Assembly: GCA_030765065.1 (NCBI GenBank)
Contig: CM060979.1
Coordinates: 107,868,350 to 107,932,349 of the forward strand
Reading direction: 5' to 3'
DNA: 64,000 nucleotides
From: Deroplatys truncata
Lineage: Eukaryota > Arthropoda > Insecta > Mantodea > Mantidae
The notes below the pieces were generated by a model. The model saw only the letters and a program-made list of their open reading frames with translations. It made no database searches and was not told where the DNA came from. The position numbers and the translations under genes are program-made. Below, piece after piece: positions 3,735-64,000 of this stretch; position 1 is the stretch's first letter, and every line of letters begins with the position of its first letter.

Positions 3735-4625
3735 ACTAATTGCAGAACTCAATTATTCAGATGTTAGGTTGGGGGGTATTTCATGGAAATGGTGTCGTAT
3801 TCTTGGAAGATACTAAACTGAAATACCAAATGTGGTATCTACCCACCTTTTTTTACACAGTTAAATGCCTTTTTCTAAAACTGGTTTTTACCTGTCTTGA
3901 AGGATCCCAAAACGAGTGTTTACGGTGAAATTTCATTACTGAACTTTTGGATGGAATATTCTATCTATAATACGTAAGTGGTAGATAAAATAAAAATCTG
4001 ATGTAATACATACACATGACTTTCTCTACCCTCTATCTTTATTAGTGGGTATACAAACTATTCTTACTAAAATTTATCTTTCTATCCATTACATTTTAAC
4101 CAAAAAAACTTTGCAGAAATAGCTACATTACAGATTTTGTTATAGGCACAAAGAGAACAGCAATAGTCAAATGTTTAAGAACTGGATACGCTATACGCTT
4201 AACGTTTTCCAGTTGTACAAGATTATACAGAATTCCTTCTGAATGAAAAGGACTTCACAGGCTATTTCCAGAAAAGTTAAGATATACCGTTTATTTGTCA
4301 TGTGATATTTTACTCCAAATCGTTAAAACCATTTTTAAGAAAAACAAAATTTTCGAAAAATGTTCCATGTAAAGTGTAGTTGGGGTGAGGGAATTTTCTT
4401 GAAAATCTTCCTGTTGCAGCTTTATAAGGCACTGAGCCTAAATACCAAGTATTTATCCGACTTTTAGTTTTTTTAGTTATACTGTTCACACACACACTCA
4501 CAGATACACACAAACTTCTTTCTGAAAATGCTTTCTTTGGATTCACGGTGCCTCAAAACATGTATTTTCGGTAAAATATCGGTAACGAACTTTTGGGTGG
4601 AATACAAAAGTTCAAAATATCTGAG
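3735..4625 (+). repeat. Rep-A, old forward copies
   Basis: Two adjoining forward pieces of the Rep-A family, strongly diverged from the 27-33 kb cluster. The first (3,735-3,990) carries the unit end: GAAGATACTAAACTGAAATACC, then a TTTTGGATGGAATATT block and a decayed AGTAGAGAAAGT terminus near 3,980. The second starts at ACTTTCTCTAC near 4,019 and holds the conserved blocks TTTCGAAAAATGTTCCATGT, CTAAATACCAAG and an embedded CA-rich tract at 4,487-4,512. It ends with TTTGGGTGGAATAC near 4,600. The join between the two pieces, with ATCTGATGT then CACATGACTTTCTCTAC, is the same join seen in the main cluster. The open frames here are shadows of the repeat. Confidence 0.75.
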
Positions 4626-9004: not shown

Positions 9005-10732
9005 ATTTACCCTGCTAACGATCTTGATTATAACATGTAAAGCAAATAGAACGAAACCTTAAATATGTTATATTTATATGGTTATAAACAGATTTGATTC
9101 TCTTTTGTTTTGCTGTGCCTTAATTACTACATCATGACCATCTATATGTATGTACATATATTGCTTGGAGCGAAATATCCGCGACATTTGTTTTATTTTT
9201 CATGCGTTTCCTGTGAAGTAACAACTCAAGCATGTTCTTTTATAACCTCAATGTGTGCATATTCAAGTATAAGAGCTTTTAAAATCCTTTTTAATCTATT
9301 GTAATTTATGAACTGAAATTAGCAGGTGTTTTTGGCTCCATGTCCTTCGGAATGACTTGGTCTTTTTAATGGAGAAAAAAGCATTAAGATTGGTTGAGTG
9401 GTTTTTGAGGTTACCATACATACACACACATTTTCTATTTTTATAATATTAGTTACTGTCTTTTAGGGAAAAAATACACAAAAGCGAATTGCTGTTAGGA
9501 TTTTTAACGCTGATCACATTCTTCCCTCTGTGTCCAGTACACGCTGGTCAGTAACAGTATTGGAGCAGCTAATGTGTTCCCGGCTGTGTATGATATCGAT
9601 CTGACTCTAAAAGGACAGCACAGGGAATCCCCATGTGGCACAGATTTGCCAGTGGAATCTCTGGACTGCGGGTCTCCAGAACGTGCCACAGGCTGGGATT
9701 TTGATCCACATGAGACCATTGCTTTATCACTGCCAAGAGAGATTCTCTTCTGGATATTAGTTTGTTTTTTGCGTCAGTGGTGAAGGCTTGTGCTGATGGA
9801 CTTGATGGCAAATCACCTTCAATAATGCATGATCAATATCGCTAACACTGTAGATCACTTTGCGCCTTGAGTGGTCATAGTTCAAGGATGATTTGTTGGA
9901 ATTCTCTGCTGTGTCGATATCTGTGAATATAGATGCCATACCTCTGTTAAATACTATTGAACTTCACCATCCATCTGCAGCATATTCAGAATCTCTCTAT
10001 TGCCTTGCACTGATTAGGAACAAGGTGCATCACAAGCATGATGACTTGTGTACGTGTACAGAATCTTGCCTTCAAATACTGGTATTAAAATAAATATAGA
10101 AACTCGGGAATTTTAATTCATTCAGGATGATTTTGAAAAGGTGCAGAAGTGCATAAAATGTTGTACCTATACGCTGATGTAGGAATTCGAATGCGCTAGA
10201 CACCCTTCGCTGAATCTGCAGGAATAACTGGCATGTTATACAAAAGTTAATGTAGTTCAGACCTTATAAACTGTAAAGCAAATTGAATTTTAAAGACAAT
10301 TAAAAATATTGTAAGTGCATATTTTATGCCGCATTAAGAAATACACATATTTGGAAAAAATATTATATCTTTTCTAATCTTTGACGTCTTTTGATATTTT
10401 TATTGATCTTTTGGGGAACCCAACGCGTTGCTAAAATCATTCTGCATATAAAATATTGCCGTAAAAATATATTATTTTGAATTTTTGTGAATAGCCTCTG
10501 AAGTCATTTTCAGTCGTATGAAATATTATACATCCGGAAAAACATAAGAGATGGAATAAAAGTTATTGCAAGAAAACTATAAAACATTGAAATATATATG
10601 CGCTTAACAATCATGAATTATATGCTGTTTTTGCTTACGTTCTCTCATGTTAAAACCTAATGCGATGGATATCTGTGCCCATTTGGATATGAAGAATATT
10701 ATTGTTTCACGTTGTTTGCCCCACGTATGGTT
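9005..10732. other. Interval between two direct Rep-B copies
   Basis: Mostly AT-rich and unassigned. A patch at about 9,510-9,800 has higher GC and is open on both strands (69-80 codons), for example minus-strand residues WSHVDQNPSLWHVLE. I recognise no family and cannot tell an exon from chance. No LTR-element coding motifs, primer-binding site or polypurine tract were visible, so I do not read 8,039-11,691 as a single element. Confidence 0.35.
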
Positions 10733-11691
10733 TGTTACGTTATTTATTAGCACCACGCTTTGGGCGTCAATTTTAAGTAGTGTGTATTGAAGAAGTTGTA
10801 TTATATTTCGAACGTTGGAGAGCCGAACTTGTAGTAGTTGCAACCGCACGTATAGTAAACAGTTTCCGGTAGCCTTCGCCCCAAATATACTTTCAGGTGG
10901 CCTTTGCCCCAAGTTTAAAAAAAATATTAACTTTGTAATTTAACTTTTCTTTAAATATTATATATTTATGTTTACCTCGGCTGCGTCAGTATTATTGTTA
11001 GAGATACGTTTCTCTTAGCAGGGCGTGATGCGACAAGAATGTAGGCTTACACAGATTATAATTTTATTCACCCCTTTTATTAATACTTGATACGATTTAA
11101 ATAACACTTCACTGATATAGAGAGCTGTGAGATTCTTTTATTAAATACTTGCACTTTTTAACACGTAAAACTATTTTCGTCTCACACGAATACGTAATAA
11201 ATCTCTCGAGGATGTGACTCGCGTCCGGTTAGGAACACTGTTTGCAGGCAACTGAATTGATTTCAACGCCTAAACTTATAAATTTCTGTATTTAAAGTCT
11301 CTGATTGGCTAATCTTACTCCAATAGAATATCTTTATTTAACTAAAGATTTTTCTGGTTGTTGATTGGCTATTTTATAAACTGTCACAAAAATGACATTA
11401 TTGTTGCTCCAAGAATGACTAGTAGCATTTAAACTTTCAAATTCATTATTGTCTCAAGGTTACCTCATTGTTAGCAACTTTTAACCTCACAGCTCCTACA
11501 TTATTAAATTACGTAATACATTCACATAACATTATTACACATGGATACAATAATATAAACATATACAATGATTGTAATATACACTTTTTATATATTGTTA
11601 CATACATATATTGCTTTAAAGCGGGCTGTTATTGAATTTATATATTATATAATTAGACTGAAATTATGTAAGTGTTAAAAATACTGCCTCA
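10733..11691 (+). mobile_element. Rep-B copy 2, solo-LTR-like repeat
   Basis: Second direct copy, ~959 bp. It starts TGTTACGTTATTTATTAGC and ends ATACTGCCTCA. It shares with copy 1 the blocks CACCACGCTTTGGGCGTCAA, GGTAGCCTTCGCCCCAAAT, GGCTGCGTCAGTATTATTG, CGTCTCACACGAATACGTA and the three ATTGG/CCAAT boxes near 11,300-11,370. It has no coding region. The flanking bases do not form an obvious target duplication. Non-coding solo-LTR-like fossil, moderate age. Confidence 0.55.
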
Positions 11692-13199: not shown

Positions 13200-13895
13200 C
13201 ATGTTGGGATGTAAATATTTTTACTACCCATGAAAAACGGTACAAAATAAGAATAAAATACATGATTCCCTTATATTATTTATATCATCTGTATTTATTA
13301 TTTTAGAATTGACAAGCTTCTTTCTGCTAAAGCAGATAACGATTTCGATTAAAAAATCATATATTAAAAATATTTACTTGATAAATAAAATGTATATCTT
13401 GAATTTTCTGGGAATAGCTTTTGAAGTGTTCATTTGGAAGAAATTTTGTATAACTGGTAAACGTTAAGCGATAGGGAAAAATTACTATATAAAAATGCAG
13501 AGCTCTTTAAAACACACATTTTATTTAAATAAGTCTTTTATGGTATAAGACGTTTCTGAAATATTCGTTAATTAAGGTTAGAATTGTGGATTTCTTAGTC
13601 ATCCTCTTAAAGTCCTTTCGATATTCAGTTGTTTCTCTTGTTGCATGTAAACAGTATGGAATTTTAAGGCTAGCATATAGCGTCCAGTCTTAAACGTTTG
13701 ACTATCTATGTCTTCTTTGTAACTATAACGAAATGTGTAAGGCAGCTATTTCTGCAAAGGTTTATTTGGATTAAAATGCAGTAGGTAGAAAAGTAAGCTT
13801 GAGTAAGATTAAGTTGTTTAGTCACTAATAAAAGTTAGAGGATAGAAAGGTATGTGAATGTCTCATATCAGATTTTTTTAAGTACGATTTCCAAA
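13200..13895 (-). repeat. Rep-A, reverse copy of the second subfamily
   Basis: Read in reverse, this holds Rep-A blocks such as TATATCTTGAATTTTCTGGGAATAG (split across 13,392-13,416) and AACTGGTAAACG near 13,450. It closely parallels 32,560-33,120: both have AACAGTATGGAATTTTAAGG, GCATATAG(C/T)GTCCAGT and TATAACGAAATGTGTAA, which the main cluster units lack. It ends in the family joint, with GTTAGAGGATAGAAAGG then ATCAGATTTTTTTAAGTACG, at 13,840-13,890. Confidence 0.7.
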
Positions 13896-17170: not shown

Positions 17171-18406
17171 ACAGCTCTTGCCTCGTCCTCTTTTGCTGGG
17201 GGACCGATTGTTTTATAGGTATACTAGGTGTTGCATATATGGCGATTTGGCGAACGTAGGCACCACTGAGCTAAGGGAACATAAAGGTTATGGTGGGTCA
17301 AATGTACGCAATTATGACAATTTAGGGAAGTCTATTTCACTTTGAGGAATCGAAAGAATGCTTATATCAGAAGTCAGTTTGTATTGTAATGGTATTATGC
17401 GTTAAAAAGAAAGATTTTAACATGCTGAAGTATTTTCCATTAGATGATGCACCAAAGGAAGCATTATAAAAGGAAAGCGTGAACATAGAACGAAGGTTTT
17501 GACAACCGCTAATGATAAATATAAACATTTTTGACCCACATTGAATATTTTAATGAACTCTACCTTATCTTTGCAGTAGGGCTTCCCAGGTATTTAAAAT
17601 TGTACATGAATGAAAAATACTTCAGACAGTGCACAGGAGCTTCATGACTTAATTTGTTTTGTTACTACCTCAAATTTATAATATTTTAATGAAAATGATT
17701 AAGAACCGTTTTTGGAAAACGTAAGAAAACGAAATATTTTAGTAAATAAAAGGTTATTTGGGAGTATTTTCGTGAATACCTCGTCACGCATACAATTCCC
17801 TATATTTGTTTTTTCATTCTTCAGATGTATTCAAAGCATTTATTTAGTAAAATATCGATTTTGAATTTTTGAGTGCATTGCAATACTTCCTTTCCTTTGA
17901 TCTCGAAACGTAAGTTTACGCCTCTAGTGCACCTGATATGCAGAATTTGTTGTTAAAACTGCTGGGATATACATAAAGTGTTTAAGTAGTTTTCCACTAT
18001 ATTGAATAGTGTCAATACCATCCGCAAAAACATATTTGTGGAAAACAATTGCAATAGTTTCTTCATGTATTTTCAGGATGTATAGGTCCTTTCTGTTCTA
18101 CTACCTACCTCTACTATGTGTGTTTTAAACGTGATCATAACATGAATGAAATAGAACAAAAAGGAAAAGAAATAAAGATTATGAAATGAACAGTGTACAG
18201 CACACTCGCACCGAATGCACCGGCCTGCGGCAAGTCGAGGAGCGAAAGTCAAGTCTCCCCGGTGACGATCAGGAAATCGGAACGTGCAATGTCATGACTA
18301 AATCTGAAGGCCTGGACAGCGAGCGTAAGAAGTTAACTGTATCGCGAACCACATTTAGCGACTTGTTTACAACAACTGATAAGGAAAAGATAATGCACTC
18401 TAGAGC
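17171..18406. other. Spacer between duplication copies
   Basis: About 1.2 kb of AT-rich DNA. Only the end, near 18,186-18,400, is less AT-rich and open on both strands (100 and 61 codons); I recognise no family there. Confidence 0.35.
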
Positions 18407-23829: not shown

Positions 23830-24240
23830 TCAACGTTTCACATTAAAAGGAATCTCTGGTTAGTCCTTTCTGTACATCTTGAAGCAGAAAGATTTTGAAA
23901 CTACTCGTGTTAGAAGAAAAATGAATAAATGTCTGTTTGTTGGTTATTTTTAAGTAATCCAGTATTTTTAAATACTTATATCTTTCCAGCTTTTCTACCA
24001 CATACCTAGTAGATAGAGGAAATATTGTATTCCACCCAAAAACGTATTGTGGGGATTTCAAAGAAAAACATTTATTGAGCCTCCGAATAAAAATATAAGT
24101 TTTACAAAACGTATGTGCTTGGGTGTGGCTGTGGTTGTTAATAGCATAACTCAGAAACAAAAATGATTGAAAAACACCAAATTTGCGGTTTGAGTTCAGT
24201 ATTATTGAAAGATGCGACACAAAAGTATTTAAGAAAATCC
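23830..24240 (-). repeat. Rep-A, reverse fragment
   Basis: Carries the unit end in reverse: CTAGTAGATAGAGG, then GTATTCCACCCAAAAACG near 24,028, then a GTGGCTGTGGTTG tract where other copies have the CA/TG microsatellite, then CATAACTCAGAAACAAAAATG and AAAGATGCGACACAAAAGTA. Open for 125 codons on the minus strand (23,843-24,220). The equivalent region of the 28.5-kb copy is also open for 131 codons, but the residues agree only loosely. Confidence 0.7.
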
Positions 24241-24284
24241 TCTCGCCATAAACTGTAAAATCTAATTAGCTGAGTTTCATCAAC

Positions 24285-27139: not shown

Positions 27140-27773
27140 TAAAGATTATTTTTACTTTCTCCACTACGTATAGTAAGTAGGAGAAGTAATGCATTTGACT
27201 CAAAAATTTGAAGTTGAAATTTCACCGGCTGTACATGTTTCGAGGGTCCCTGAATCCAGGAAAAGCATTTTTAGAAAAAGGTCCTCCGTGTGCGTGTCTG
27301 TGAGCAGCATAACTCAAAAACGAAAAGTCGGATAAATACCAAACTTCGTATTTAGGTTCAGTATGTTTCAAAGATGCGACACGAAGATTTTCAATAAAAT
27401 CCCCCTTCCTAGATTACCCTTTACATGGAACACTTTTCGAAAATTTTGATTTTCTCAAAAATGGCTCTAAAGACTTTGATTAAAATATTATATATTTAGA
27501 TATGACATTTTCATGACAAATGAAATGCATATCTTGAATTTTCTGGAAATGTCTGTCAAAAACCCACTTCATTCTGAATAACTTTGCACAACTGGTAAAC
27601 CATAAGAGATAAACAAAATGTTACTACACAAAAAATCTAATGTGTTACACTCACATGACTTTCTCTACTATCGAGATGTTAATCTTACAGCTAATTTTCT
27701 TGTAGATGCAAAGGGAATTGCTAGGCTTTAAGCGATAGTCAAATATTTTAAGAGGTGGTTGCTATGTGGAGTA

Positions 27774-27843
27774 TATAGAATGGGATGCTAAGGACCACAG
27801 CAGTTAAAAAGCGTCCATAAATAAATGGTATAAAAAAACTCCA
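27774..27843 (+). mobile_element. SINE-2, 5'-truncated tail
   Basis: About 70 bp match the 3' end of the SINE copies at 43,532 and 54,405: ATAGAATGGGATGCTAAGGA, then AGTTAAAAAGCGTCC and ATAAATAAA. It interrupts a Rep-A block (GTGGAGTAT | CCATTCT), so it inserted into a Rep-A unit. No clear target duplication. Confidence 0.8.
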
Positions 27844-27891
27844 TTCTTTTTGCATTACCAGACAAAAAATCTGATGTGTTACACTCACATA

Positions 27892-28753
27892 ACTTTCTCT
27901 ACTCTTGTACAATCTAATTTTACAAACGCCTATTCTCCATATGCTTCATGTTAATCGAGATATCGAGATGTCAATCTTATTCGTAATTTTCTTGTAGATG
28001 CAAGGGAAATATGGTAGCTTTTAAGCGATAGTCAAATATTTTAACGCTGGTTGCTATGTGGCGCATTCCATTCTCTTTGCATGTCCAGGACATAAAAAAA
28101 ATGAATAACGCATTTAAGAAAAAGTATAAGTATTGGAAAATTTAAGGAAATAACAAGCAATATCTCGAAAACGGTTCACTCAACAAAAGAAATGTATATG
28201 ACATAAGTTGTGTATTTTAACGGGATCTACATTCTTTGTGTAGTAAAATTTTGTCTATCTCTTATGGTTTACCAGTTATGCAAAAGTCGTTCACAATGAA
28301 GAATACTTTTGGAGACATTCCCAGAAAATTCGAGATATACATTTCGTTTCTCATGACATTATCTTAAACATATGATATTTTCATCAAAATCGTTAGAGCC
28401 ATTTTTGAGAAAATTAAAATTTTCGAAAAATCTTCCATGTAAAGGGTAGTCTGGGGTGGGGGGATTTTCTTGAAAACCTTCGTGTCGCATCTCTGGAAGA
28501 TACTGAACCTAAATACCAAGTTTGGTGCTTATCCGACTGTTCGTTTTTCAGTTATGCTGTTCACAGACACACACACACACACACACAGACACACACACAC
28601 ACACACACACAGACACACACACGGACATGTTTCCAAAAATGCTTTTTTTGGATTCAGGAGGTCTCAAAACATGTATTTCCAGCGAAATCTCGGTATCGAA
28701 TTTTTGGGTGGAATGCAATACTTCCCCTACTTACTATACGTAGTAGAGAAAGT
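27892..28753 (+). repeat. Rep-A, most complete unit
   Basis: An 862-bp unit running from ACTTTCTCTACT to AGTAGAGAAAGT, which are exact 12-bp inverted termini. In order it holds an ATGCTTCATGTTAATCGAGA block (27,946), a TAGTCAAATATTTTAA block (28,028), a TATCTCGAAAACGG block (28,161), TTTACCAGTTATGCAAAAGT (28,268), TTTTGAGAAAATTAAAATTT (28,403), the CA microsatellite (28,565-28,622) and TTTTTGGGTGGAATGCAATA (28,699). The next forward unit starts at 28,783 after a 29-bp linker. The 131-codon frame at 28,470-28,865 crosses the linker and is mostly the microsatellite; I do not call it a gene. Confidence 0.75.
28565..28622. repeat. (CA)n microsatellite embedded in Rep-A
   Basis: CA dinucleotide run interrupted by CAGA. 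Shorter or decayed tracts lie at the same point of other Rep-A copies (4,487-4,512; 30,018-30,055 as TG; 31,752-31,790), so the tract is part of the repeat. Confidence 0.95.
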
Positions 28754-31700
28754 AAAAAAATCTGATGTGTTACACTCACATGACTTTCTCCACCCTTGTA
28801 CAAACTATTTTTACAAACGCTTATTCTCCATATGCTTCATGTTAATCGAGATATCGAGATACTAATCTTATTGCTAATTTTCTTATAGATACAAGGAGAT
28901 TGGTAGGCTTTAAGTTATAGTCAAATATTTTAAGAGCTGGTTGCTAGGTGGAGTATTCCATTCTCTTTGCACTACCAGGACAGAAAAAAAAAATGAATAA
29001 CGAATTTGAGAAAAAGTATAAGTATTGGAAAATTTAAGGGAATAACAAGGAATATCTCGAAAATGGTTCACTCAACAACAAAAATGTATGTGACATAAAT
29101 TGTGTATTTTAACGCGAACTACATTTTTTGTGTAGTAAAGTTCTGTCTATCTCATATGGTTTACCAGTTATGCAAAAGGCGTTGACAATGAAGAATACTT
29201 TTGGAGACATTCCCAGAAAATTCGAGATATACATTTCATTTGTCATAAACACATCTTAAACATATGATATTTTAATCAAAATCGTTAGAGCCATTTTTGA
29301 GAAAATTAAACTTTTCGAAAAATGTTCCATGTAAAGGGTAATCTGGGGTGGGAGGATTTTCTTGAAAACCTTCGTGTTGCATCTCTTGAAGATACGGAAC
29401 CTAAATATCAAGTTTGGTGTTTATCCGACTGTTCGTTTCTGAGTTATGAGAATACATTTTTTTTGTTCAGTGAACCATTTTCGAGATATTGCTTGTTATT
29501 CCCTTAAACCTTCAATGCCTATTTTCTCAAATGGGAATCGTTATTTATTTTTTTTGTATTGGAAATGCAAAGAGTATTAATCTGCGGCAAAGAGAATGCT
29601 GATGCACATAGCAACTAGCTATTAAGAGATGTCTATGCTTAAAGGCTACTGTATTTCTATATTGCCCTTGCAAATACGAAACAAGGGGAACATAGTTAGC
29701 CTTAAGCAATAGTAAATTATTTTTAGAACTGATCGCTATGTGTAGAATGTCTTTGCATGTCAAAAGATCGTTTCTACAAATGTTTATCTGGATTAACATG
29801 AAGCATATGGTGAATAAGCGTTTGTAAAAATAGTTTGTACAAGAGTAGAGAAAGTCATGTGAGTGTAACACATCAGATTTTTTTACTTTTTCTACTACAT
29901 ATAGTAAGCAGGGGAAGTATTGTATTCCCCCAAATTCGATACCAAGATTTCACCATAAAATATGTTTTGAGACTCCCTGAATGCAAAAAAAGAAAAAACA
30001 TTTTTGGAAACTTGTCCGTGTGTGTGGTTGTGTGTCTGCATGTCTGTCTGTGAATAGAATAACTCAGAAGCAAACAGTCGGATAAACATTACACCTGGTA
30101 TTTAGGTTCAATATCTTCCAGAGATGCGACACGAAGGTATTCAACAAAATCCTTACACCCCAGATTATCCTTTACATAGAACATTTTTCGAAAATTTTAA
30201 TTTTCTCAAAAATGGCTCTTAACGATTTTGATTAAAATATCATATGTTTAAGATATTTTCATGAAAAATAAAATGTATATCCTGAATTTTCTGGGAATGT
30301 CTCCAAAAGTATTCTTCATTGTGAACGACTTTTGCATAACTGGTAAACCATAAGAGATAGACAAAATTTTACTATACAAAAACTGTAGATCGCATTAAAA
30401 TAACAATTTATGTCATATACATTTTTGTTGTTGAGTGAACCATTTTCAAGATATTGTTTGTTATTCCCTTAAATTTTTCAATACTTATTTTCTCAAATGA
30501 GAATTCGTTATTCATTTTTTTGTCTTGGATATGCAAAGAGCATTAATCTGTGGCAAAGAGAATGGTGCTGCACATAACAACCAGCTATTAAGAGAGATGT
30601 CTGTGCTTATATTGCCCTTCCAAATACCAAACAAGGGGAACATAGTAAGCCTTAAGCGATAGTCAAATATTTTTAGAACCGGTGGCTATTGTAAAATGTA
30701 ATTCTCTTTGCATGTCAAACGATCGTTTCTGCAAATGTTTATCTCCATTAATATGAAATAGATGGAGAATAGGAGTTTGTTAAAATGTTTGTACAAGAGT
30801 AGAGAAAGTCATGCGAGTGTAACACATCAGATTGTTTTGTCCTGGTAATGCAAAGAAAATAGAATACTCAACATAGCAACCGGCTGTTAAAATATTTGAC
30901 TATCGCTTAAGCCTGCCAATTCCCCTTGCATCTACAAGAAAATTAGCAATAAGATTGATATCTCGATTAATATGAAGCATATGGAGAATAAGCGTTTGTA
31001 AAAATAGTTTGGACAAGAGTAGAGAAAGTCATGTGAGTGTAACGCATCAGATTTTTGTGTCTTGGATATGCAAAGCGTATTAATCTGTGGCAAAGAGAAT
31101 AGTGCTGCACATAGCAACCAGCTATTAAGAGATATGTCTATGCTTAAAGGCTACTGTATTTCTATTCTTCCCTTGCAAATACAAAACAAGGGGAACATAG
31201 TACGCCTTAAGCGTTAGTCAAATATTTTTTGAACCTGTCGCTATGTGTAAAATGTAATTCTCCTTGCGTCAAGAACATAAAAAAGAACAACGAATTCTCA
31301 GTTGAGAAAAACTGTAAGTATTGAGAAATTCAAAGAAATAACAAGGAATATCTCGAAAATTGTTCACTTTACAAACAAAAGAAGTGTTTATGACATATAT
31401 TGTGTGTTTTAACTAGATCTGCATTTTTATGTAGTAAAATTTTGTCTCGCTTGCGGTTTACCAGTTATGCAAAAGTCGCTCAGAATGAAGAGAACTTTTG
31501 GGGACATCCCCAGAAAATTCAAGATATACATTTTATTTGCCATAAAAATTTCTTAAACATATGATATTTTAATCATAATCGTTAGAGCAGTTATTGAGAA
31601 AATAAAATTTTTCGAAAAATGTACCATGTAAGGGGTGTTTTGGGGTGGGAGATTTTCTTGAAAACTTTCCTGTCGCATCCCTGGAACATATTGAACCTAA

Positions 31701-33130
31701 ATACCAAATTGGTGTTTATCCGACTTTTCGTTTTTGAGTTATACTGTTCACAGACAGGCAGACACACGCACACACACATACACACACAAGATGTACACAT
31801 GGGCATGTTTCCAAAAATGCTTTACGTTTTTTATGTCCTGGACATGCAAAGAGGATGAAATGCTCCACATAACAACCAGCTCTTAAAAGATTTGACTATC
31901 GCTTAAAGCCTACCATATTCCCCTTACACCTACAAGAAAATTAGCAATAAGATATAGCCTGCAAACGTTTATCTCGATTAATATGAAGTAGATGGAGAAT
32001 GGTTTGTACAAGAGTAATGAAAGTCATGTGAGTGTAACGCATCAGATTTTTCCCATAGTTTTGTTTCTCCTGAGCATGCAAAGAGAATGAAATGCTCCTC
32101 ATAGCAACCAGCTCTTAAAACATTTTACTGTCGCTTAAAACCTAGCATATTCCCCTTGCACCTACAAGAAAATTAGAATAGCATTAAGTATCTGCAAATA
32201 TTTATCTCGATTAACATGAAGTATATGGAGAATAAGCGTTTGTAAAAATAGTTTTGTATAAGAGTAGAGAAAGTCATGTGAGTGTAACACATCAAATGTT
32301 TACTTTCTGTACTACGTATAACAAGTATGGAAAGCATTGTATTCCATTCAAAAATTCGATGTTGAGATTTCACCGGAAATATGTGTCTAAAAAGGGTCTG
32401 TGAGTTTGTGAACAGTATACTCAAAAATGAAAACTCGGTTAAATACCAAACTTGGTATTTAAGTTCAGTATCTTCCAAGGATGTAACACGAAGATTTTCA
32501 AGAAACTCCCCTCAGCTACCCCTTAGTTGGAACATTTTTCGAAAATTTTGTTTTTCTAAAAAATGACTCACGATTTTTATTAAACATATTTACATGACAA
32601 ATAACATGTATATCTTGAATTTTATGAAATAGCCTTTGAATTTCTCTTCATTCGGAAGGAATTTTGTATAAGCTTCAATAACTGGTAAACGTTAAGCGAT
32701 GGACGAAAATGTACAAAATAAAAAATATGTAGATCTCTTTAAAACACATAAATTATTTCAAGTAATTTTTATTGTGGTATAAGTCATTTCTGAGATATGC
32801 GTTATTAATGGTTCGAATTCTTCATTACTTGGTCATTATTTAATGTCCTTTCAACATTCACTTGTTTCTCATGAGTGCATGGAAACAGTATGGAATTTTA
32901 AGGCCAGCATATAGTGTCCAGTTCTTAAATATTTTACTATCGCTGTTCTCTTTGTATCTATAACGAAATGTGTAATGGGCTATTTTTGCAAAGGTTTATT
33001 GGTATTAAAACGCTGTAGACATAAAAAGAAACGTTAGTAAGAGTAGTTTGTATACTCACTAATAAACGTTAGAGGGTAGAGAAAGTCATGTGAATGTTTT
33101 TACGTTTTGTACTGCAGAATAGTAAACCGT

Positions 33131-51010: not shown

Positions 51011-51270
51011 ACTGAGGTTAACTGATATACAAGGCCAAAACCTTACATTGTCACAAGAAGACAAATGATTCACAAGAAACATGAACCTTACAACTTCCGT
51101 CGACTGTCCTCTAGAGCTGGTGTTCTCAACCTATGCTACGTGAGCTACTGCCGAGTGGTACGTAAACTTTTGCACTGAAACAAAACCATTGGTCAGAAAT
51201 TACTTAAACTTGTAAAGTTTTGCTGATTGCACGTCTGAGTAGTGGAGTAATAGTCCAAGTTTGTGTACGT

Positions 51271-52195
51271 TGAGGCAGTACTTTAACACAATGATTTCAG
51301 TCTAATTATATAATATATATATATATAAATTCAATAACAGCCCGCCTTAAAGCAATATGTGTATTTAACGATATATAAAACGTGTATATTACAGTCATTG
51401 TATATGTGTATATTATTGTATCCATGTGTAATAATGTGGGAGCTGTGAGAATAATAAGTTAAAAGTTGCTAACAATGAGGTAACAATGAGGTAACATTGA
51501 GGCAATAAAGAGTTTGAGAGTTTAATAATGTTACTTGTGATTCTTGGAAGCAATAATGTAATTTTAGTGACAGTTTATAAAATAGCCAATCAACAACCAG
51601 AAAAAGCTTTAGTTAAAAGAAGGTATTCTATTGGATTAGGAATAGCCAATCAGAGACTTGAAATACAGAAATTTACAAATTTTAGGCGGTAGAAATCTAT
51701 TCCGTTGGTTGCAAACAGTGTTCCTAACCGGACGCGAGACACGTCCTCGAGAAGTTTAATACGTATTCGTGTGAGACGAAAATAGTTTACGTGTTAAAAA
51801 GTGCAAGTGATTAATTAATGAATCTCACAGCTCTCTATATCAGTGAGGTGTTATTTAAATCGTGTCAAGGATTAATAAAGTAGTGAAGTAAAAATTAAAA
51901 TCTGTGCAAGCCTACATTCTAAGTCGCACCACAACCCTGCTAAGATATCCATGTGTCTAACAATATTACTGACGCAGCCGAGGCAAACATAAATATAATA
52001 TTTAAAGAAACAATCAAATTACAAAGTTAATATTTTTTAAAAATTAGGGCAAAGGCTACCGGAAAGCGGGTACTATAGGTGTGGTTGCAACGAATTTCAA
52101 GTTCTGTAACCCAACAGTTGAAATATAATACAACTCCTTCAAGGCAACAACTACTTCAAATTGATGCCCAAAGCGTGGTGCAAACAACGTAAAGA
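51271..52195 (-). mobile_element. Rep-B copy 3 (reverse)
   Basis: Reverse copy of the solo-LTR-like repeat: TGAGGCAGTACTTTAACAC at its left edge is the complement of the Rep-B 3' end, followed by AACAGCCCGCCTTAAAGCAA, the paired ATTGG/CCAAT boxes (51,580-51,660), ACTGACGCAGCCGAGGCAAA and GCCCAAAGCGTGGTGC near the 5' end. Non-coding fossil, somewhat more diverged than copies 1 and 2. Confidence 0.55.
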
Positions 52196-52229: not shown

Positions 52230-52431
52230 TTAACCTCATTAACCTTTAACACGTTTCACAGAACAATTCATTGAATAGTGAAGGTAGAGATTTATTTTAG
52301 GAGGAATTGTATTGTAGTTCGATTGTTGAGGAGCCAAACTTGATGAAGTAACAGCCCCACATATTTGTACAAAATTTCCGGTGGCTTTCGCCCCAACGTT
52401 TAGAAATCAACTTTGTATTTATGTTTCTTTA

Positions 52432-52477
<46 letters not shown>

Positions 52478-53219
52478 GTTTGCCTCGGCTGCGTCAGTAT
52501 TAACTTGTGGAAACATGTATCTCTTATCAGGGGGTGATGCGGCTAAAGAATGTAGGTTTACACAAATTATAAGTTTTACTTCACTCGTTTTATTAATCCT
52601 TCACACGATTAAATAACACTTCACTGATATACAGCGCTGTGAGATTATTTATTAATTACTTGCACTTTTTAACGCGTAAACTTTATAATATTCTCGCCGT
52701 AATGAATTGTCGTCTCACACTGAATACGTATTAACTGCTCGGGAACGCGTATAGCGTCCAGTTTGGAACGCTGTCTACTAGCAACTGGCGTTTACTGCTT
52801 AAATTTGTAAATGTTTCTATTTCAAATCTCTGATTGGCTAATCCTACTCCAATAGAATACTTTTATTTAACGTTCAGATTTTCTGGTTGTTGATTGGCTA
52901 TTTATAAACTGTTTTAAAATATTACATTATTTTTCCAAGAATTACTAGTAGCATTATTAAACTTTCGAATTCATTATTGCCTCAAGGTTACCCAATTGTT
53001 ACCTCATTTTTAGCAACTTTCAGCTTCTGTTCTCACAGCTCCAACAGTGTTAAATTACTTAATACATTCACAAAGCATTATTAAACATATAAACATTAAT
53101 ACAATGATTTTTAAATACATGTTATATATTTCATTATACACATATTGCTTTAAGGCGGGCTGTTATTATATTTTATATAATTAGACTGAAATAATTTAAG
53201 TGTTAAAAACACTGCCTCA
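52230..53219 (+). mobile_element. Rep-B copy 4 (forward), head to head with copy 3
   Basis: Forward copy, the most diverged of the four. It has GGTGGCTTTCGCCCCAA (52,380), CTCGGCTGCGTCAGTATT (52,485), CGTCTCACACTGAATACGTA, TGATTGGCTAATCCTACTCC (52,832), AAGGCGGGCTGTTATTAT (53,150) and ends ACACTGCCTCA at 53,219. Its first ~150 bp align poorly. With copy 3 it makes an inverted structure with TGAGGCAGT...ACTGCCTCA at the outer edges. Non-coding fossil. Confidence 0.55.
52436..52472. repeat. (TA)n microsatellite inside Rep-B copy 4
   Basis: Uninterrupted TA run at a point where copies 1 and 2 have only AAATATTATATATTTATG. Confidence 0.95.
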
Positions 53220-53412
53220 ATAACAACAGATCAAACAGATTTAATTCTAAATATTACACACAAGAAATACATCAGTAGTATTGTTATAAACGTAGATAAA
53301 TGCAGTTTACTACAAAATCGTCGTAACATTTGCTTATTGGTAATCTAAGTAATATCCTGTATTGAATATAAAGGTATGTCAGTTGAAAAGGTTGAGAACT
53401 CCTGCTCTACAA

Positions 53413-62644: not shown

Positions 62645-64000
62645 CCCACTAACACTAACAGGTAAGTAATTCAGCTAGTATTGCAAGAGGTTGACTGCAT
62701 CATAGCAGTGTATGATTTCACATGTAATTCAGCTAGTATCGTATGTATTTAGGCTAATTCATCTAGTAACACAGAATAGATTCCAGAGGCTAACTGCATC
62801 ATGGCTCTGCATAATTTCACAGATAATTCAGCTAGTATCGTAGGTATTTAGGCTAATTCAGCTAGTATCACAAGAGGATAGATTCTAGGGTTGGGTATAG
62901 CTTAGTGTCGTATTTCACAGGTAATTCAGCTAGTATCGTAGGTATTTAGGCTAATTCAGCTAGTATCACAGGAGGCTAGATTCCAGGGTTGGGTATAGCA
63001 TAGTTTCATATTTCACAGGTAATTCAGAGGGTATCGTAGGTATTTAGGATAATTCAAGTAACATAGGTGTTTAGAGTAATTAAGCAAGTATCACAGGAGG
63101 CTAGATTCCAGGGTTGGGTATAGCATAGTTTCGTATTTCAGAGGGTATCGTAGGTATTTAGGATAATTCAAGTAACATAGATGTTTAGAGTAATTAAGCA
63201 AGCATTACAGGAGGGTAGGTTCCAGGGGTTGGTTATAACCTAGCTTCGTATTTCACAGATAGTTCAGGTAATATCGTAAGTATTTGAGGTAATCGACAGA
63301 GCTTCACAGATATTATTGATAATTTCGATCAGAGATTTGTATCACAGCTATTTAAGGTAAATGCAGATGATTCAGGTTGTATCAATGGTATTTGAGTCAT
63401 CTTAACAGCTAATTCAGATAGTATCACAGGTGCTCGTGCTAATTTAGAGCAGGAATTCGTATCAGAGCTAGTTAAAGTAATTTCACATGATTCGGGTAGT
63501 ATCACAGGTATTTAAATCATTTTCATAGCCAATTCAGCTAGTATCGTGAGCATTTAAGCTAATTCAGCTAGTATCACAGGAGGCTAGATTCCAGAGGCTA
63601 ACTGCATCATAGCTATGCATGATTTCACAGCTAATTCAGCTAGTATCGTAGGTATTTAAATCATTTTCATTGCCAATTCAGCTAGTATCGTGAGCATTTA
63701 AGCTAATTCAGCTAGTATCACAGGAGGCTAGATTCCAGAGGCTAACTGCATCATAGCTATGCATGATTTCACAGCTAATTCAGCTAGTATCGTAGGTATT
63801 TAGGCTAATTCAGGTAGTATCACAGGAGGCTAGATTCCAGGGTTGGGTATAGCATAGTTTCATATTTCAAGGTAATTCAGAGGGTATCGTAGGTATTTAG
63901 GCTAATTCAGCTAGTATCACAGGAGGCTAGATTCCAGGGTTGGGTATAGCATAGTTTCATATTTCAAGGTAATTCAGAGGGTATCGTAGGTATTTAGGAT
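62645..64000 (+). repeat. Minisatellite 3, ~30/~98-bp higher-order array
   Basis: An array running off the right edge. A ~30-bp subunit AATTCAGCTAGTATCGTAGG + TATTTAGGCT alternates with a ~68-bp subunit AATTCAGCTAGTATCACAGG + AGGCTAGATTCCAG. The second continues in two versions: GGTTGGGTATAGCATAGTTT or AGGCTAACTGCATCATAGCT. Each combined unit is about 98-100 bp. Units near 62,645-62,830 and 63,240-63,500 are the most divergent; units after 63,540 are nearly identical to one another. Confidence 0.92.

What the first reader, a model, noticed from the sequence alone, without database searches (positions are those of the whole stretch)
27140..33130. Rep-A: a cluster of non-coding repeats with no recognised family
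Nearly 6 kb consists of one repeat family in mixed orientation, and the window holds at least five further copies (3.7, 13.2, 23.8, 49.2 and 50.7 kb) spanning a wide range of ages. It has no transposase, RT or pol III head that I can see, yet its internal block order is well kept. I do not recognise it. It could be a non-autonomous DNA transposon, a foldback element or a dispersed satellite.
Basis: partly seen in the sequence, partly recalled or inferred. Interest (0 to 1): 0.7.

Follow-up and report, generated by a model that had tools for sequence, protein, structure and literature searches.

The report
Abundant non-coding Helentron passenger transposons
The repeat cluster is a nest of short non-coding jumping DNA elements that share both ends with a gene-bearing rolling-circle transposon of the same genome and pile into one another at runs of T; the kind is known, but this family is unusually abundant.

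Summary
5,899 of the 5,991 bases at 27,140-33,130 belong to one repeat family in mixed orientation. Copies at 3.8, 13.3 and 24.0 kb are real, one at 17.5-17.9 kb was missed, and those at 49.3 and 50.8 kb are too weak to claim.

The family is recognisable: a HINE/DINE-1-like element, i.e. a non-autonomous Helentron (rolling-circle transposon) of about 884 bp. On the element strand it begins T5-ACTTTCTCTACTACG (hairpin), holds a microsatellite, and ends GTAGAGAAAGT-CATGTGAGTGTAACACATCAGA plus T's. Both ends recur on a ~10.4 kb Helentron of the same genome, read in two copies (Rep-helicase plus a borderline endonuclease match); in 39 of 39 other scored copies similarity stops at the same 3' terminus.

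Ends within 2 mismatches number about 267,000 each. Elements insert at T-runs, including one inside themselves and those at their own ends, giving nested and head-to-tail arrays like this cluster. Exact junction counts put a second element at 35% (B side) or 19% (A side) of internal T-runs. New family, known kind.

The parts
27870..28753 (-). Complete non-autonomous Helentron (HINE), positions 1-882 of the profile; 98.5% to the majority sequence
27636..27867 (-). 3' module 'A' (profile 657-791 and 849-882) directly behind the complete copy, giving B-A-A; pieces 27669-27867 and 27636-27669 are 88.0% and 97.1% to the majority sequence
28761..29448 (-). 5'-truncated copy (profile 196-882), 92.3%, head-to-tail with the complete copy
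27154..27639 (+). Partial copy with the 5' end (profile 1-524), 85.4%
29452..29877 (+). Partial copy (profile 555-882) with the 3' end, 89.0%
29885..30831 (+). Second complete element (profile 1-882), 89.3%
30834..31051 (+). 3' module A (profile 656-882), 91.2%, behind the complete copy, again B-A-A
31052..31189 (+). Fragment of module A (profile 654-765), 82.6%
31168..31824 (-). Copy without either terminus (profile 108-765), 85.4%
31810..32046 (+). Module A (profile 632-882), 86.1%
32059..32294 (+). Module A (profile 653-880), 89.0%
32302..33097 (+). Old element in two pieces (profile 1-87 and 174-871), 82.8% and 75.2%
28727..28758 (-). 5' terminus: T5 + ACTTTCTCTACTACGTATAGTAAGTAG, subterminal inverted repeat nested in a hairpin
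   Evidence: DNA fold z -3.4; TTTT plus these bases, 31/31, identical in the Helentron
27864..27902 (-). 3' terminus: GTAGAGAAAGT (inverted copy of the 5' subterminal repeat), short palindrome ATGTG..CACAT, CAGA, T-run
   Evidence: 97% over 39 bp to the Helentron 3' end; hairpin weak, z -0.9
28562..28622 (.). (CA)n microsatellite inside the element
3767..4613 (-). Old dispersed copy in three pieces (72-82%)
13336..13872 (+). Old dispersed copy, profile 356-882 (72%)
17524..17894 (-).
23991..24252 (+). Old dispersed copy, profile 4-302 (75%)

Best explanation
Rep-A is a HINE: a non-coding, internally deleted derivative of a Helentron, mobilised in trans by the Rep-helicase/endonuclease protein of gene-bearing Helentrons in the same (probably insect) genome. 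SHOWN: fixed ends; both ends shared with a ~10.4 kb Helentron; insertion at T-runs; very high copy number; copies sitting in the internal and terminal T-runs of other copies. INFERRED: the Helentron protein recognises the shared ends, replicates one strand by rolling circle and inserts it at a T-run. Repeated insertion into an internal T-run (B-TTTTTTT-A) gives nested B..B-A..A blocks, insertion at terminal T-runs gives head-to-tail copies, and insertion into T-runs of the other strand gives mixed orientation. Start or stop at an inner terminus may yield mobile composites (B-B-A, B-A-A). The window cluster is a pile of such insertions of different age.
For: Same 5' and 3' ends in 20 of 20 fetched best copies. 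58 complete elements in the held loci and window, 744-1,111 bp, 45 of them 850-895. Balanced genome counts at <=2 mismatches: 267,872 5' ends and 267,309 3' ends, reversed-pattern control 0. Two Helentron copies on different chromosomes, 99.4% identical over 7,533 bp, lose similarity right at the Rep-A 3' end (31/33 bases) and carry the Rep-A 5' end 31/31 with a leader largely made of Rep-A modules. Similarity stops at query 494-506 (CAGA ends at 490, T-run at 497) in 39 of 39 other scored copies at 96-100% identity (40 of 562 candidates scored). Pfam: Helitron_like_N, DUF6570, PIF1; Exo_endo_phos_2 at the C-terminus, 27.4 bits against a cut-off of 27.4. T-runs: 67 of 84 5' ends preceded by >=5 T, 91 of 103 3' ends followed by >=5 T. 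Empty sites: T7 became T5-element-T7 in a tandem repeat of about 92 bp (L041) and inside Rep-A (L025, one case in L015). Exact junction counts: B|B 17,490, uninterrupted B|A 32,331, A|B 6,514, A|A 7,582, controls 0.
Against: The endonuclease match sits exactly at the cut-off in the C-terminal 300 aa and was not listed at E 1e-3 for the 2,200-aa frame; Exo_endo_phos is below its cut-off. The 3' hairpin is 5 bp and no better than many shuffles (32 of 200 for Rep-A, 67 of 200 for the Helentron end). The 3' subterminal repeat lies 22 nt from the terminus, not 38-60 as in mite HINEs. Whether the T5 at the 5' end is element-borne or a target duplication is not settled, though TTATT in 5 of 58 copies favours element-borne. 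Only two Helentron copies were read at letter level; the 5' end was compared only between these two. Copies used for ends and profile were picked by similarity or by an exact 3' end, so they lean young.
Confidence: 0.95

Rival explanations
1. A cut-and-paste miniature transposon (MITE) with a TTTTT target duplication and a short inverted repeat.
For: About five T's are added at the insertion sites compared, and an 11-bp inverted repeat links the two ends.
Against: The inverted repeat is asymmetric: terminal on one side, 22 nt inside on the other. A TTATT variant of the 5' pentamer recurs in 5 of 58 complete copies. Both ends are those of a Rep-helicase Helentron.
Confidence: 0.02
2. A retroposon (SINE-like) in the reader's orientation, because that strand ends in an A-run.
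Against: A-runs lie at both ends; 5' and 3' ends occur in nearly equal numbers, so there is no sign of 5' truncation bias; both ends match a rolling-circle transposon; no tRNA or Rfam match in the window.
Confidence: 0.01
3. The clusters and tandem modules arise mainly by rolling-circle read-through or unequal exchange (satellite-like growth), not by repeated insertion at T-runs.
For: Long runs of B modules (L023); head-to-tail junctions 6,514; a 3.4 kb tandem repeat carrying one copy per unit in the stretch read; B|B junctions outnumber A|A (17,490 against 7,582), which simple nesting alone would not give.
Against: In 6 of 58 complete copies both flanks are the two sides of the internal T-run of another copy, and in 3 more both flanks are the two sides of a T-run on the opposite strand of another copy, as insertion predicts. 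The A|A pattern (at most 9 T's) loses long T-runs, so it undercounts. Inverted neighbours in the window need insertion, not tandem growth.
Confidence: 0.25
4. Random segmental duplication of anonymous DNA.
For: None beyond the repetitiveness.
Against: Fixed ends in 20 of 20 fetched copies and about 267,000 copies of each end against 0 for the reversed pattern.
Confidence: 0.005

Closest known systems
HINE / Helentron pairs of the mite Metaseiulus occidentalis and Culex (Thomas et al. 2014, PMC4067079; passages and section 6 seen)
   Same: Non-coding element with subterminal inverted repeats, 5' and 3' palindromes, microsatellite or tandem repeats in some copies, T-rich target, variable T-runs at the ends, derivative of a Rep-helicase-endonuclease Helentron
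   Different: 3' subterminal repeat 22 nt from the end instead of 38-60 (mite); internal T-run between two modules that is itself an insertion site; about 267,000 copies of each end
DINE-1 / INE-1 of Drosophila (same paper)
   Same: 5' inverted repeat whose first arm lies in the subterminal repeat, microsatellite, 3' stem-loop, TT target, very high copy number
   Different: Sequence kinship to the DINE-1 core was not tested; the anatomy alone is compared
Cg_HINE of the Pacific oyster (PMC7492417; abstract and section 9 seen)
   Same: Non-autonomous Helentron that spreads satellite-like arrays; T-rich target, no target duplication found there
   Different: There the array is a central repeat inside one element; here arrays are modules and whole elements stacked at T-runs
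FoHeli non-canonical Helitrons of Fusarium oxysporum (PMC5148889; passages seen)
   Same: Self-insertion and composite elements with several 5' termini are described or proposed there
   Different: Other termini and another preferred target (TNAT^A for FoHeli1 and 2); one nested example is named there, whereas junctions here number in the thousands

Membership tests
HINE (non-autonomous Helentron) | Non-coding interspersed element with defined ends | tested here: met
   20 of 20 fetched best copies share both ends; 58 complete copies in held sequence; of the stop-to-stop frames of 120 aa or more only two, 140 and 134 aa, overlap the cluster (not searched against families)
HINE (non-autonomous Helentron) | Subterminal inverted repeats, adjacent to the 5' end and some way inside the 3' end | tested here: met
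   ACTTTCTCTAC / GTAGAGAAAGT, 11 bp (12-15 in mite); 22 nt inside the 3' end rather than 38-60
HINE (non-autonomous Helentron) | Palindrome at the 5' end | tested here: met
   DNA fold of 41 nt at the 5' end, -5.7 kcal/mol, z -3.4, 3 of 200 shuffles as good
HINE (non-autonomous Helentron) | Palindrome of 5-10 bp near the 3' end | tested here: inconclusive
   5-bp stem ATGTG/CACAT present, but 32 of 200 shuffles fold as well, z -0.9
HINE (non-autonomous Helentron) | Insertion in T-rich sites, at least two T's on each side | tested here: met
   82 of 84 5' ends preceded by >=2 T, 97 of 103 3' ends followed by >=2 T
HINE (non-autonomous Helentron) | No target-site duplication | tested here: inconclusive
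   About five T's are gained; the TTATT variant argues they belong to the element
HINE (non-autonomous Helentron) | Autonomous Helentron partner with the same ends | tested here: met
Helentron (the partner) | Rep/helicase protein with a C-terminal endonuclease domain | tested here: met
   Helitron_like_N and PIF1 well over cut-off; Exo_endo_phos_2 at the C-terminus E 3.2e-6, 27.4 bits = cut-off 27.4, seen only when the last 300 aa were searched apart
Canonical Helitron | 5' TC, 3' CTRR, insertion between A and T | tested here: not met
   Element strand starts T5-ACTTTC and ends CAGA at a T-run
HINE / Helentron | Rolling-circle transposition catalysed by the partner protein | not testable with these tools
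   No transposition assay; inferred from shared ends

The most novel reading that the evidence does not exclude
The element carries its own landing pad: an internal T7-8 run followed by a perfect palindrome (ATGTCC-T-GGACAT) imitates a terminus, so that, by exact junction counts, a fifth to a third of these sites have received, or been fused with, another copy. The resulting composites would be mobile as units (the gene-bearing Helentron itself has a doubled leader module), making this a self-stacking transposon that turns into dispersed satellite-like arrays across the genome.
Probability: 0.2. Interest if true: 0.5.

Novelty: new member of a known kind. Interest (0 to 1): 0.35.

Why it matters
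It names a repeat that looked orphaned and pairs it with gene-bearing Helentrons that are nearly identical to one another (40 of 40 scored copies, the query included, 97-100% over 1,997 bp) and may still be active. It also gives a countable system for how rolling-circle transposons nest, fuse and seed satellite-like arrays. That the Helentron mechanism is still mostly inferred is my recollection; a young family with hundreds of thousands of ends makes it testable in population data.

Tried and rejected
I first noted 'no endonuclease' from the Pfam run at E 1e-3 on the 2,200-aa frame; the C-terminal 300 aa alone gave a match at the cut-off, so I withdrew that, but the match stays borderline.

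I first thought that modules A and B amplify on their own; flank mapping shows that nested insertion explains part of it. I also asked whether self-insertion is enriched: 35% occupancy of the internal run (B side; 19% on the A side) against an average of 0.16 insertions per T>=7 run is only about 2-fold, and about 30-fold if all T>=5 runs count as targets (tract density taken from 58 kb of this window, 23 and 316 tracts). So T-preference alone may suffice. Exact-match junction counts are lower bounds, and the gap of at most 5 bases loses long T-runs. Led nowhere: Rfam and tRNA scans, exact 3' end in viral contigs (0), papers on katydid or bush-cricket Helitrons (listings only). Of 19 regions fetched from the start of C1 as a copy sample (L034-L052), L040 held no end (wrong coordinates on my side) and L046 was only 401 bases; 15 of 19 entered the divergence count, which took complete copies of 800-960 bp.
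Full report
CHECK. Self-comparison of the window shows one family between about 27.14 and 33.10 kb in both orientations. The copies at 3.77-4.61, 13.34-13.87 and 23.99-24.25 kb are real, and 17.52-17.89 kb is an unlisted one. Those at 49.26-49.47 and 50.80-50.98 kb are no longer found at E 0.01 when microsatellites are masked. The reversed window gave one hit, at the CA repeat, and none on masking. Identity to the majority sequence ranges from 70.1 to 98.5%.

GENOME. The window lies at C5:107,868,350-107,932,349 of a 4.29 Gb genome with 818 contigs. It has 5 matches to 7tm_6 odorant receptors at E <= 1e-10, all over the cut-off but each with stops in the aligned stretch. This family is insect-specific by recall, so the host is probably an insect. 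One sequence (C16) exceeds 627 Mb. That this might be the X of an orthopteran is a guess that I did not test.

ENDS. The 862-bp unit matches 40 of 40 scored places, the window's own included, over its full length at 96-100%, out of 2,372 first-look candidates. In the 20 next-best copies, fetched with flanks, both boundaries are the same; outside them lies either unrelated sequence or another Rep-A module. The 5' 41 nt fold into a hairpin (z -3.4, 3 of 200 shuffles as good); the 3' palindrome is 5 bp and weak (z -0.9, 32 of 200; for the Helentron end z -0.3, 67 of 200). Counting ends with up to 2 mismatches gives 267,872 5' ends and 267,309 3' ends, reversed-pattern control 0 for both. These counts include satellite units and nested modules. 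At 0.23-0.88 kb each this would be roughly 1.4-5.5% of the genome (inference).

PARTNER. Pfam Helitron_like_N has 152 matches in the genome (150 of 291 candidates scored); 18 listed rows have open frames over 2,000 aa without stops in the match. Two such copies, on C13 and C9, were read. Their 3' parts are 99.4% identical over 7,533 bp, and similarity ends right after GTAGAGAAAGTTATGTGAATGTAACACATCAGA plus T's, the Rep-A 3' end (31/33). Upstream, similarity begins within about ten bases of a T-run + ACTTTCTCTACTACGTATAGTAAGTAG, identical to the Rep-A 5' end; the first 1.9 kb or so of a non-coding leader of about 2.6 kb is Rep-A-like and includes a doubled B module. From these coordinates the element spans about 10.4 kb. 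A search with 601 bases crossing its 3' end scored 40 of 562 candidates: the query itself and 39 others at 96-100% identity, all of which stop at query 494-506, where CAGA ends at 490 and the T-run at 497 (one further 34-bp match left aside). 40 of 40 scored copies of a 1,997-bp coding stretch, the query included and out of 171 candidates, are 97-100% identical. The protein carries DUF6570, Helitron_like_N and PIF1 helicase, and its helicase part matches PIF1 helicases and the Helraiser transposase among solved structures. Its C-terminal 300 aa match an endonuclease family exactly at the cut-off; the whole frame did not list it at E 1e-3. I take the partner for a Helentron, and Rep-A for a derivative that keeps leader modules and the 3' end but lacks the gene.

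TARGETS. In the held sequence 67 of 84 5' ends have at least five T's in front and 91 of 103 3' ends at least five behind. Empty sites: in a tandem repeat of about 92 bp (L041) AATTTC-T7-GTTACT became AATTTC-T5-element-T7-GTTACT; at one site inside other Rep-A copies T7 likewise became T5-element-T7 (L025 and one case in L015, with the window's copy as empty site). A TTATT variant of the 5' five bases occurs in 5 of 58 complete copies, which suggests that these bases belong to the element. Thomas et al. 2014 describe the same variable T's and no target modification (PMC4067079, section 6 read; passages), and the oyster paper reports T-rich sites without duplication (PMC7492417, abstract and section 9).

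CLUSTERS. In 6 of 58 complete copies both flanks are the two sides of the internal T-run of another copy, and in 3 more they are the two sides of a T-run on the other strand of a copy; several others lie head to tail at terminal T-runs. Genome-wide exact junction counts are: uninterrupted B|A 32,331; B followed by a new 5' end 17,490; A|A 7,582; head-to-tail A|B 6,514; all controls 0. So 35% of internal runs counted on the B side, and 19% counted on the A side, adjoin another element. Nesting would give B..B-A..A blocks (L023, L021, L012), and insertion into the other strand's T-runs gives mixed orientation. The window shows two complete copies, each with an extra A module behind it (28,753 down to 27,636 on minus; 29,885-31,051 on plus), plus truncated and older pieces. 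Composite elements with several termini were proposed for Fusarium Helitrons (PMC5148889, passages). Whether B-B-A and B-A-A units move as such, which the excess of B|B over A|A hints at, and whether the palindrome after the internal T-run matters, is open: enrichment over other T-runs is about 2-fold for T>=7 and about 30-fold for T>=5.

AGE. The 54 complete copies used for the profile lie at a median 1.9% from the majority sequence, range 1.2-10.4% (picked by similarity or exact ends, so leaning young); 15 copies from the start of C1, picked by an exact 3' end, have median 2.8% and fall into a group at 1.3-3.2% (9) and one at 7.5-8.2% (6). With the near-identical coding copies this suggests recent, perhaps ongoing, movement; activity was not shown.

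VERDICT. A new, very abundant family of a known kind. Paper searches looked for words, not sequences, so they cannot tell whether this very family has been named.

Noticed in passing
L033 = G000:C1:20300-27300; the motifs recur with this spacing to about C1:122.6 kb: A tandem repeat of about 3,409 bp near the start of C1 carries one complete HINE per unit in the stretch read; the two units overlap at 98.9% identity. A satellite monomer has captured a Helentron passenger.
   Followed up: partly
L032:2530-3000 and L030:2-1801: The N-terminus of the Helentron protein shows a weak, below cut-off match to Herpes_teg_N (a viral-type cysteine protease family, by recall), E 4.2e-5 and 0.0027 for two pieces searched apart. 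Other Helentrons are reported to carry OTU proteases.
   Followed up: no
L030:542-1465: An in-frame array of 63-bp units (about 21 aa, KMKNTKNLKGREIKNIWSKPE-like) inside the Helentron frame; it may explain part of the frame length variation of 2,108-2,543 aa.
   Followed up: no
window:8036-9006, 10730-11691, 51270-52192, 52307-53221: A separate family of about 950 bp with a similar 3' end in the four window copies (...ACTGCCTCAA-like) and, in many of the 40 scored genome copies, the same 3' end with ragged 5' ends; 9,749 first-look candidates. It looks like a 5'-truncating retroelement; unnamed.
   Followed up: partly
window:61460-62300 and 62667-64000: Tandem arrays with 69-bp and about 97-144-bp periods at the window's right end.
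   Followed up: no
G000:C1:38116489, C13:170325206, C4:128870265, C16:246487701: A second Rep family scores higher on Helitron_like_N (187-196 bits) but has a stop within the match in each of these four rows; it appears distinct from the Helentron family and perhaps older, not aligned.
   Followed up: no
whole window: CpG observed/expected is 0.80, only mildly depleted.
   Followed up: no
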